Assembly (NCBI RefSeq): GCF_040183065.1
Contig: NC_091120.1
Span: 169,105,488-169,169,487 of the forward strand
Reading direction: 5' to 3'
DNA length: 64,000 bases
Origin: Periplaneta americana
Taxonomy: Eukaryota; Arthropoda; Insecta; Blattodea; Blattidae
Made by a program: the position numbers and the translations under genes. Shown here in pieces: positions 33,801 through 54,582 of this stretch (positions are counted from its first letter, which is position 1; the number at the start of each line of letters is the position of its first letter). The notes under the pieces are model-generated. The model was not told the origin of the DNA, did no database searches, and saw nothing but the letters and a program-made list of their open reading frames with translations.

Positions 33801-36800
33801 TGAACATTTTTAACAAAAAATTATGTTTCTACGACAAAAATTACATTTATTTTATTGAATTCTGAAAATTTTACTTTTAAAATAGGCATTTTGAGTAAAT
33901 TGCATTTAAAGTCGAACTTACAAAATTGGATGCTAATATAACATATTTCAACATCATTAGCATCCTTGGAGCTGTATTTTATATGTAGTTCATGAAATAA
34001 TCTAACAGATCTCAAAATCGATTTTTTTGTTCTCATTTGTTTTATTTTGCTCTACTGAAAAATTATGTCTGCCGACTTAAGGTGGGGTTTTCCAAGCAGT
34101 CTCACAAATAAGAAACAGTTTTTTTTACCCGCTAATATCAGTGTGATCAAGACAAATTTTTAACACTCCATGATAGGCAATTGTGATATAGACAATAAAT
34201 TAAACAGACATGTGTTTGAAGATTAGGTAAAGTTTTATTCAATAAATTGCAACTTATATCCAAATTAACTCACTATACCCAAATTATCCCAATCGCACCT
34301 ATTCCTGAAAAGTGGGATTATCTGTCAGGTGGGATTTCTTGAAAGTGAGAATTAATCACACTGCTTCTATGGTAGTTCTGCTGAAACTTTCGAAATAATT
34401 CTTCAAAAACGGGAATTAAAATGGAACAAGATTTTACTGTATAATACAATATTAAAATGTTTGCCGAATGCAATGTGATCAGATTTCCATAATGAAGACC
34501 AGATTTAAAATATTATCAAGTGGAGGGTAGTACTGATGTACAATATCGTTGGAAAGGTTTTCTTGAACTACTCCCACTTGTACTATGTCACAGATATCCT
34601 CATTATCATTAAGAAAAAGTAATCAATCCTGCAGCCCAATACAATGTCTAATCTGTTTGTTTACTATGTTTAGGCCTGTTATATGCATGCTATTATCTTT
34701 CCTGTACTTAATTTTCCCCTCATTTCTCTTTTGTGGTCTGTTTTTCTTTTCACTCAATATGTTTATTATGCTTTGTCCAATGAGACAATCCCGTCATTGG
34801 GAAAGCTGAAAGAGTGTCTTTCAATGTGTTAGCACATACGGCATCATACCTGACCTACTACTTTAATTTCATGCATATTTAAAAAAATAAAAGAATAAAA
34901 TTACCTTCCTTCGGTGATTTTGGTTTTAGTTTATTGTCTGAGATATGCTTGATTACATCTCCTTTCAGCACTCTTCCTTTACGACCAGTACCAGTAATCT
35001 GACCAGAATGAAGATGGTATTGCTCTAGTAGCATGCGAACAGCTGGCCCAAAATTCCTAAACATATTTATTTATTCAAATGGCATGAACATAATAAAACT
35101 GTCATACATTCATTCTACTTCTAGCTTCCCAATATCTACTACTGTCTTATTCCTAAACATATAATGATTTCGTACATTCAGTAATTTTCTATTAGGTGCG
35201 CCATTAGCCGAATATCTTGAGCAGTGGTGACCAACTCGTACTCTTCACTGCACATGAGCAGTATGTGAGAGCAGATCGTTTCAATGTAATGCTAATGTTG
35301 CTCTTTTTTGCTAGTGAAGGCAATGTTCATGCATACAGTGATTTCTAAGAGCAGCTGAGTTGGTCACCACTGCACTGAAGCATAGTCTTTTTATGCTGGC
35401 AACCCAAGTTCAAATACTGGTGGGTCCAACTAGAATTTATGATGAACATAGATGTTGTTTGGTAATAGGGTTTCACAGAGTACTCCTGTTTCCCCTACAG
35501 AAAATCTATCATTGCTCAATATTATTAATCATCATCATAATACGGTGCTGTGCAATTCGCCTTCCCTGTTGCACCATGTCTACGAGAGGCTAGAAGAACT
35601 ACAGCTTTGGCATGTTGCCTACAGATGTGGGTGCTTGGGTGAATACTGGAAGTCAAGTACCATCATTAGATTTTAAAAAGAATAATTTTCTAGTTATGTA
35701 TTAATTGGATATGTATAAAGAAAAAAGGTCGTATAAAATAATAATAATAATAATAATAATAATAATAATAATAATAATAATAATAATAATAATAATAATA
35801 ATAATAATAACAATAATAATAATAATAAAAGGTAAAGGTATCCCCGTAACATGCTATGAAGGCACTTGGGAAGCATGGAGGTAAAGCCCCATGCTTTCCA
35901 TGACCACGGCACTAGAATGAGGTGGTGTGGTCGGCACCATGCTCTGACCACCTTTTACCCCTGGGAAAGACCCAATACTCAATTTTATAGGACGCTGAGT
36001 GAACCTCAGGGCCGTTCTGAAAGTTTGGCAATGAGAAAAAATCCTATCACCACCTGGGATCGAACCCCAGACCTTCCAGTCCGTAGCCAGCTGCTCTACC
36101 AACTGAGTTACCCAGCCACATAATAATAATAATAATAATAATAATAATAATAATAATAATAATAATAATAATAATAATAATAATAATAATAATAATTATT
36201 ATTATTATTATTATTATTATTATTATTATTATTTTTAGTAAGTTATTTTACTTCGCTGTATCAACATCTCAGGTTATTTAGCGTCTAAATGAACTGAAGA
36301 TGGTAATGCCGGTGACATGAGTCCGGGGTCCAGCCCGATAGTTACTCAGCATTTGCTCGTATTGGGTTGAGGGAAAACCCTGGAAAAAACCCCAACCAGG
36401 TAACTTGCCCCGACTGGAAATCGAATCTGGGCTACCTGGTTTCACAGCCATATGCGCTAGCTGTTACTCCACAGGTGTGGACATTATTATTATTATTATT
36501 ATTATTATTATTATTTCTGTTACAGGGATTACAAACAAGTCTGGAAAAAGAGTATGATATGTATGTGTGTATGTGTATGTGAGTGTGTGCACATACACAG
36601 GGAACTACATCACCATCACTTTCTATTGTTATTGTCTATGCAGTAAACAAAATAACATCACCACTTTTCGTTACTGATTTTCGTGTAAAAAAAAAGAACA
36701 CACATGCACACGCGCACGCACACACACACACAGATATATATATATATATATATATATATATATATGAAGAAAAAATCTGAGGTATAACTCACTCTAGTTT

Positions 36801-54582: not shown

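What the first reader, a model, noticed from the sequence alone, without database searches (positions are those of the whole stretch)
36793..54137. E3-binding protein with two tandem lipoyl domains made by a two-exon duplication
Exons 2+3 and 4+5 each encode a complete lipoyl domain plus linker. The N-half exons have identical length (182 nt), identical phases, and 56 of 60 identical residues, including the lipoyl-Lys block DIQTDKA, while third codon positions differ widely. That pattern means both copies are old and both are under protein-level selection. Human PDHX carries a single lipoyl domain. A second swinging arm on the non-catalytic subunit would raise the lipoyl density of the complex, and this is the main functional novelty in the window.
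Basis: partly seen in the sequence, partly recalled or inferred. Interest (0 to 1): 0.8.

Follow-up and report, generated by a model that had tools for sequence, protein, structure and literature searches.

The report
Cockroach PDH subunit with two arms
In what appears to be the American cockroach, the gene for the helper protein that docks one enzyme of the pyruvate dehydrogenase complex encodes two swinging-arm domains while the gene for the core enzyme encodes one, the reverse of the human arrangement.

Summary
The minus strand carries a complete 11-exon gene (595 aa) for a non-catalytic E2-like subunit, most likely PDHX/E3BP. Exons 2+3 and 4+5 each encode a full lipoyl domain (LD). The LDs are 92% identical in protein while 34 of 46 fourfold sites differ: an old duplication with both copies constrained. 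Two further results. (1) Of 16 possible exon 2-5 combinations three keep frame, and exon 3 keeps frame only with both cassettes included, so its constraint predicts a double-LD protein and argues against mutually exclusive splicing. (2) In the same genome (3.23 Gb, fits Periplaneta americana) only one LD was found for the catalytic E2 (DLAT), and two genome-wide searches list just these three LD places. E2=1/E3BP=2 reverses the human E2=2/E3BP=1. Not shown: transcripts, lipoylation (both LDs have Gln three residues before the lipoyl Lys, where the sequences compared have Glu), E3 binding, and presence in other insects. NCBIfam's best model names the protein as acetyltransferase, so the E3BP name rests on the lost catalytic His and LD/core comparisons. 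No paper describing it was seen; insect protein databases were not searchable.

The parts
54456..54582 (-). Exon 1: start Met, presequence-like N terminus ([23 protein letters not shown]...FHKSSFLW)
   Evidence: phase out 1; donor GTGGGT (a GTAAGG 4 nt downstream would be out of frame)
53956..54137 (-). Exon 2: N-half of lipoyl domain 1 (60 codons + split codon), DIQTDKA
   Evidence: 182 nt, phase 1 to 0
44989..45151 (-). Exon 3: C-half of lipoyl domain 1 plus Pro/Ser/Ala hinge
   Evidence: 163 nt, phase 0 to 1; in frame only in the path with all four exons
37420..37601 (-). Exon 4: N-half of lipoyl domain 2, DIQTDKA
   Evidence: 182 nt, phase 1 to 0
36793..36977 (-). Exon 5: C-half of lipoyl domain 2 plus Ala/Pro hinge
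   Evidence: 185 nt, phase 0 to 2
34905..35056 (-). Exon 6: peripheral subunit (E3)-binding domain
   Evidence: Pfam E3_binding 1.9e-6
31406..31566 (-). Exon 7: hinge and start of E2-like C-terminal domain
26471..26647 (-). Exon 8: E2-like C-terminal domain
   Evidence: Pfam 2-oxoacid_dh 4.2e-75 for the whole protein
20376..20560 (-). Exon 9: E2-like C-terminal domain
20149..20249 (-). Exon 10: E2-like C-terminal domain
18659..18831 (-). Exon 11: end of C-terminal domain and stop; YDGRAFDEE where catalytic E2 has CDHRVVDGA

Best explanation
The gene encodes the mitochondrial E3-binding protein (E3BP/PDHX) of the pyruvate dehydrogenase complex with two tandem lipoyl domains, made by an old duplication of a two-exon cassette. 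Shown from sequence: an intact 11-exon frame, two complete LDs, an E3-binding-type domain, an E2-like core domain without the catalytic His, both LDs under strong purifying selection, splice phases that make exon 3 readable only when cassette 2 is also included, and a partner E2 in the same genome for which one LD was found. Inferred: each E3BP chain carries two lipoylated arms on Pro/Ala-rich hinges that take acetyl groups from E1, deliver them to E2 active sites and are reoxidised by the E3 docked on the same chain. With a human-like core (48 E2 + 12 E3BP, or 40 + 20) the complex would hold 72-80 arms instead of the 60 expected with one LD on each subunit, and a third to a half would sit on E3BP (about a ninth to a fifth in human).
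For: Gene model with consistent phases and 10 of 10 introns GT-AG. Best PDB match human PDHX 6h60, 373.8 bits, 1.5e-110 (DLAT chains follow closely, see against). Pfam lipoyl x2, E3_binding, 2-oxoacid_dh. LD1-LD2 80/87 identical; each 59-60% to human PDHX LD against 46-51% to human DLAT LDs. dN 0.05, pS 0.73, 34 of 46 fourfold sites differ. Neutral simulations 0 of 2000 in six settings. 3 of 16 exon subsets in frame, exon 3 only in the full one. E2 of the same genome: one LD found, CDHRVVDG intact. Two searches with LD queries list the same three places in the genome. Catalytic His motif present in the other three multi-exon E2-like loci (C11, C6, C10: CDHRVVDG, YDHRLIDG, ADHRVIDG), absent here. 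Core-domain identities: window-human PDHX 116/217, window-human DLAT 120/222, window-own DLAT 127/219, human PDHX-human DLAT 112/222, human PDHX-own DLAT 110/220, human DLAT-own DLAT 163/227; by my arithmetic on these the four-point sum is smallest for window+PDHX against the two DLATs (0.75 against 0.92 and 0.96).
Against: No RNA or protein data. NCBIfam's best model is TIGR01349, pyruvate dehydrogenase complex dihydrolipoamide acetyltransferase, 526.3 bits over a cut-off of 445, so a curated annotation rule would call it E2. PDB bits to DLAT chains (up to 366.9) are almost as high as to PDHX, partly because DLAT aligns over both LDs. Raw core identity is not higher to human PDHX (53.5%) than to human DLAT (54.1%) or own DLAT (58.0%). 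The E3BP/E2 discriminators in the subunit-binding domain are mixed: human R155/I157 are K/R here, and the GxI motif is absent. Both LDs have Gln at -3 from the lipoyl Lys where 150 of 150 bacterial pattern matches and the human sequences used have Glu. Two single-LD isoforms (exons 1-4-5-6 and 1-2-5-6) are also in frame.
Confidence: 0.75

Rival explanations
1. The cassettes are alternative: transcripts carry one LD or the other, giving single-LD E3BP isoforms.
For: Exon subsets 1-4-5-6 and 1-2-5-6 are in frame at 480 aa. Exons 2 and 4 are very alike, as mutually exclusive exons often are (general knowledge).
Against: Skipping cassette 2 alone (1-2-3-6) hits a premature stop at residue 167, and exon 3 is in frame only in the full path; yet exon 3 is constrained (27 of 31 core residues identical with 15 of 31 third positions changed; neutral 0 of 2000). 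A 7.4 kb intron separates the cassettes. Skipping of cassette 1 in some transcripts is not excluded.
Confidence: 0.1
2. The second LD is made but serves mainly as a docking platform for PDH kinase or phosphatase rather than as an extra acyl carrier; regulation, not flux, is what was selected.
For: Human E3BP's L3S' binds PDK2 and PDK4 and is said to activate them; PDK1 showed no binding (PMC5322387 passages). Gln at -3 in both LDs could alter lipoylation or reductive acetylation (role of position -3 is recalled, not from a call).
Against: Both LDs keep the DKA turn and nearly every residue; there is no sign of one copy specialising (dN 0.05).
Confidence: 0.2
3. Double-LD E3BP with single-LD E2 is the normal form in insects or arthropods, so the window shows an ordinary, merely undescribed gene.
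For: Saturated synonymous divergence implies an age that could predate cockroach families. From recall only, fly and nematode E2 lengths also suggest one LD.
Against: LD1-LD2 amino-acid distance is about a sixth of the distance to human PDHX (80/87 against 51-52/86; my arithmetic), which under a rough clock places the duplication inside insect history. No insect sequences could be compared here.
Confidence: 0.35
4. It is a catalytically dead second E2 rather than a true E3BP: a PDC-E2 paralogue whose docking domain still prefers E1.
For: TIGR01349 names it acetyltransferase; Arg after Gly in the docking domain and missing GxI are E2-like; raw core identity is highest to this genome's own DLAT, 127/219.
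Against: Four-point comparison and LD affinity favour PDHX; E2-type EKG absent from the docking domain; it is the only E2-like locus among those found that could be the animal E3BP.
Confidence: 0.08
5. Assembly or haplotype artefact: two alleles or gene copies collapsed into one scaffold.
For: The assembly contains at least one other close repeat pair (L080/L081).
Against: Synonymous sites saturated, introns unrelated, phases fit one transcript, no second PDHX-type LD or core place listed in the genome searches.
Confidence: 0.02

Closest known systems
Human PDHX (E3BP)
   Same: Presequence, LD, subunit-binding domain, E2-like non-catalytic core domain; best PDB match; LD 59-60% identical
   Different: One LD in human, two here; human R155/I157 are K/R here; Glu -3 of lipoyl Lys is Gln here
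Human DLAT (PDC-E2)
   Same: Two tandem LDs before the subunit-binding domain, the same layout as this protein; PDB bits nearly as high as PDHX
   Different: Catalytic His present in DLAT, absent here; DLAT's two LDs are 66% identical to each other and closer to each other than to this protein's
DLAT of the same genome (C11:178,907,293-178,938,088)
   Same: PDC-E2 with catalytic CDHRVVDG; LD, hinge, subunit-binding domain, core domain
   Different: One LD found; different LD intron positions. Its first exon and the second part of its subunit-binding domain were not located.
E. coli E2p with three LDs
   Same: Tandem alike LDs (73% identical, PMC8421416 passage), a known route to more arms per chain
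   Different: Expansion there is on the catalytic E2; that E. coli has no E3BP is recalled

Membership tests
E3BP / PDHX | E2-like domain order: presequence, LD, subunit-binding domain, core domain | tested here: met
   the presequence is judged by eye
E3BP / PDHX | Loss of the transacetylase His (DHRxxDG) | tested here: met
   YDGRAFDEE in the window against CDHRVVDGA in human and own DLAT
E3BP / PDHX | Groups with PDHX rather than DLAT | tested here: met
   Four-point distances on the core domain favour window+human PDHX; LD closer to PDHX. Against: raw core identity no higher to PDHX, and NCBIfam TIGR01349 names it acetyltransferase. No larger tree was built.
E3BP / PDHX | E3-type signature in the subunit-binding domain (no EKG; hydrophobic D-x-L-x-x-V; GxI; Arg before Gly in animals) | tested here: inconclusive
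   No EKG: met. D-V-I-K-H-I: hydrophobic, Ile for Leu. GxI not found. Arg lies after Gly (KGR), the E2-like side
E3BP / PDHX | Binds E3 | not testable with these tools
   needs protein
E3BP / PDHX | One lipoyl domain, as in the mammalian member (not taken as defining) | tested here: not met
   Two LDs. LD number is said to depend on the species in E2 (PMC6270654), so it is taken as a variant, not as an exclusion.
Lipoyl domain | Full-length domain with Lys in a DKA turn | tested here: met
   Pfam Biotin_lipoyl, 2 stretches; match to PDHX LD structure 2dnc over residues 44-135; DKA in both. No fold was predicted.
Lipoyl domain | Lysine lipoylated in vivo | not testable with these tools
   Gln at -3 leaves this open
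Mutually exclusive exons | Either cassette alone keeps the reading frame | tested here: not met
   1-4-5-6 in frame, 1-2-3-6 not

The most novel reading that the evidence does not exclude
In this insect lineage the swinging arms of the pyruvate dehydrogenase complex have been redistributed: the catalytic E2 has one and the E3-docking subunit two, so up to half of all arms are tethered beside E3. That would be an independent route to a multi-arm complex, convergent with the two-armed E2 of vertebrates, in which E3-side reoxidation or kinase docking rather than E2 transfer gains the extra arms.
Probability: 0.35. Interest if true: 0.7.

Novelty: new variant of a known kind. Interest (0 to 1): 0.55.

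Why it matters
How many lipoyl arms a 2-oxoacid dehydrogenase complex needs, and on which subunit, is usually discussed for E2 (my impression of the field). Here the E2=2/E3BP=1 layout of mammals is found as E2=1/E3BP=2, a natural experiment in arm placement with both arms kept by selection. If confirmed it lets one ask whether arm number or arm position limits flux, E3 coupling and PDK regulation. It also shows how exon phases in one genome can decide between tandem and alternative use of duplicated domains.

Tried and rejected
Mutually exclusive splicing was the main rival and is rejected as the sole mode by phase. An allelic or assembly duplication is rejected by saturated synonymous divergence and unrelated introns. 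A third LD copy in the window was sought and not found (other matches E 0.82 or worse). A second PDHX in the genome was sought: the LD query lists only the two window exons and DLAT, and PF00198 lists places on C4 (the window), C11, C10, C6 and C17; C10 and C6 read as branched-chain- and oxoglutarate-type E2s with DHR motifs (my reading), C17 is an orphan fragment. A second LD in DLAT was sought in 130 kb around the gene and genome-wide and not found; in the first 60 kb with human L2 one weak match (E 0.02, opposite strand, LD end only) was judged noise. Eukaryotic relatives in the collections: viral contigs, 10 pattern stretches, none a relative; genome contigs, 79 loci kept of 577 relatives from a capped list, with bacterial record titles, best 67% identity, so no insect comparison was possible. 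The rest of DLAT's subunit-binding domain was looked for and not found. Structure prediction was not run, because a spliced protein is not read letter for letter from the window.

Literature: ten searches. Five listed only part of what held the terms (20 of 2,877; 20 of 44; 15 of 26; 15 of 26,383; 10 of 5,815); one returned nothing. In the titles and abstract starts listed I saw no two-LD E3BP and no insect E3BP architecture. Read: PMC10156792 section 9 whole and passages; passages only of PMC8421416, PMC2880790, PMC12774602, PMC5322387, PMC6270654 and PMC13333485. The others were seen in search listings only.

Full report
The gene. On the minus strand, 54582 to 18659, an 11-exon gene can be read without a gap: 10 of 10 introns are GT-AG, every phase fits, and the product is 595 aa. 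It has a presequence-like N terminus (by eye), two lipoyl domains (LDs) joined by a Pro/Ser/Ala hinge, an Ala/Pro hinge, a subunit-binding domain, another hinge and an E2-like core domain. Pfam reports Biotin_lipoyl with two stretches (1.4e-31), E3_binding (1.9e-6) and 2-oxoacid_dh (4.2e-75). The best solved chain is human PDHX (6h60, 1.5e-110, 373.8 bits), with DLAT chains close behind (up to 366.9 bits). The acetyltransferase His is gone: YDGRAFDEE against CDHRVVDGA in E2.

The duplication. Exons 2 and 4 are both 182 nt, phase 1 to 0, 56 of 60 residues identical, with 33 of 60 third positions different; exons 3 and 5 share 27 of 31 core residues with 15 of 31 third positions different. For 97 LD codons dN is 0.05, pS 0.73, and 34 of 46 fourfold sites differ; introns show only short matches, 27 bases or less at E 0.14 or worse. 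Synonymous changes are spread along the LD, 3 to 8 per bin of ten codons (last bin seven), so there is no sign of recent gene conversion. If either copy had been free, 0.3 or 0.75 substitutions per site would have left far lower identity: 0 of 2000 simulations reached the observed value in each of six settings. The two LDs are 80/87 identical to each other, 51-52/86 to human PDHX and 37-41/80 to the two human DLAT LDs, so they most likely arose by duplication inside the PDHX line, not by inheriting the two LDs of E2. A rough Poisson ratio of these distances (my arithmetic) puts the duplication at about one sixth of the time back to the human-insect split; that is only an order-of-magnitude guide.

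Why both cassettes should be in one protein. Exon 3 ends in phase 1 and exon 4 begins in phase 1; exon 5 ends in phase 2 and exon 6 begins in phase 2. All 16 ordered subsets of exons 2-5 between exon 1 and exons 6-11 were translated: three reach the native stop, namely 2-3-4-5 (595 aa), 2-5 and 4-5 (480 aa each). Exon 3 is in frame in the first only. Since exon 3 is itself constrained, the double-LD protein is the product that selection has preserved. The single-LD paths cannot be excluded as isoforms. This rests on the splice sites of my model; a cryptic donor could change it, and no RNA was available.

The partner subunit. The window lies in an assembly of 3,231,669,367 bases in 91 contigs, contig C4. 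That size fits the 3.23 Gb Periplaneta americana assembly of Dockman et al. (PMC12774602, passages); the species name is inferred from this. PF00198 lists 13 places on five contigs: C4 (this gene), C11, C10, C6 and a C17 fragment. C11 is 65-77% identical to human DLAT exon by exon, C10 and C6 read as branched-chain- and oxoglutarate-type E2s, and these three keep a DHR motif. The C11 gene's located exons read: end of a presequence and first part of an LD (TKVALPALSPTM...), rest of that LD (...EIETDKATMGFE...), then in one exon the LD's end, a Pro/Ala hinge and the start of the subunit-binding domain, then the core with CDHRVVDG. Phases fit directly across the LD exons, with one intron that reads GC-AG, and no second LD was found in 130 kb. 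Its first exon and the rest of its subunit-binding domain were not located. Two genome-wide searches with LD queries list three places of this kind each, the same three: two in PDHX and one in DLAT; the broader PF00364 search lists nine, the others being biotin-carrier-like or C10. These searches look exon by exon and score only best candidates, so a very diverged or split LD could be missed. Human E2 has two LDs and E3BP one (PMC2880790, passage). The layout here is thus the reverse.

What it would do. With 48 E2 + 12 E3BP (PMC6270654) or 40 + 20 (PMC2880790), human complexes would hold 108 or 100 arms, this one 72 or 80, and a one-plus-one layout 60. These are my sums on human stoichiometry, which I did not find for insects. 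The duplication raises arm number by 20-33% over one-plus-one and moves the share on E3BP from about 11-20% (human) to 33-50%. The simplest mechanism is more acyl and electron transfer next to E3. The chief functional rival is kinase docking: human E3BP's L3S' binds PDK2 and PDK4 and is said to activate them, while PDK1 showed no binding (PMC5322387, passages).

Points against or open. NCBIfam's top model is TIGR01349, the mitochondrial acetyltransferase (E2), over its cut-off (526.3 against 445 bits). Both LDs have Gln, not Glu, three residues before the lipoyl Lys; 150 of 150 matches to an LSPTM...xTDKA pattern in the 79 bacterial loci and the three human LDs used have Glu, and so does this genome's DLAT. 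That this Glu matters for lipoylation is recalled, not tested. In the subunit-binding domain the E2-type EKG is absent and the E3BP-type hydrophobic motif is present with Ile for Leu, but GxI is missing and the Arg lies on the E2-like side of the Gly. On the core domain raw identity to human PDHX (116/217) and human DLAT (120/222) is equal and to own DLAT higher (127/219). The E3BP assignment rests on the four-point comparison (my arithmetic), the missing His, the LD affinity and the lack of another candidate among the places listed.

Novelty. Ten full-text searches of the open library, several with only part of the hits listed, showed no two-LD E3BP and no insect E3BP architecture. This is not proof of novelty: subscription papers and insect protein databases were out of reach, and automated annotations may already show it. 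I rate it a new variant of a known kind.

Noticed in passing
window 56572-56901 (+): SDHAF2/Sdh5 exon (Pfam 2.9e-26) on the opposite strand upstream of PDHX: two mitochondrial-metabolism genes appear to lie head to head and may share a promoter region. An upstream frame tried (55118-55297) had no Pfam match.
   Followed up: partly
window 48261-50702 (+), intron 2: An 813-codon open frame with endonuclease and reverse transcriptase domains, a non-LTR-type retrotransposon inside PDHX intron 2, antisense to the gene.
   Followed up: partly
window 54446-54456 (-): The in-frame exon 1 donor is GTGGGT; a stronger-looking GTAAGG lies 4 nt downstream and would shift the frame. Possible unproductive isoform, or exon 1 needs RNA evidence.
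   Followed up: no
window 37420-37601 and 53956-54137 (-): Gln at -3 of the lipoyl Lys in both LDs where 150 of 150 bacterial pattern matches and three human LDs have Glu; shared by both copies, so probably older than the duplication. Effect on lipoylation unknown.
   Followed up: partly
G000:C85 (1,057,713 bp; L119, L082, L087): This contig looks bacterial, not insect: in the 10 kb L119 eleven long intronless frames, some reading by eye as ankyrin-repeat and RsmH-like proteins, and biotin-carrier-type matches at two places. The assembly paper reports no other contaminants in retained contigs, if this is that assembly. A second stretch, L120, was fetched but not examined.
   Followed up: partly
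L080 and L081 (G000:C11, 520 kb apart): The same biotin-carrier exon twice, 2742 of 3201 positions identical without gaps: recent segmental duplication or retained haplotype.
   Followed up: no
L107 3108-3281 (G000:C17:134138108): An isolated 57-codon E2-like core fragment with no neighbouring E2 exons seen in 7 kb; possibly a pseudogene piece or bacterial insertion.
   Followed up: partly
G000:C11:178907293-178919222 (L103-L104): DLAT's LD is split by what reads as a GC-AG intron.
   Followed up: no
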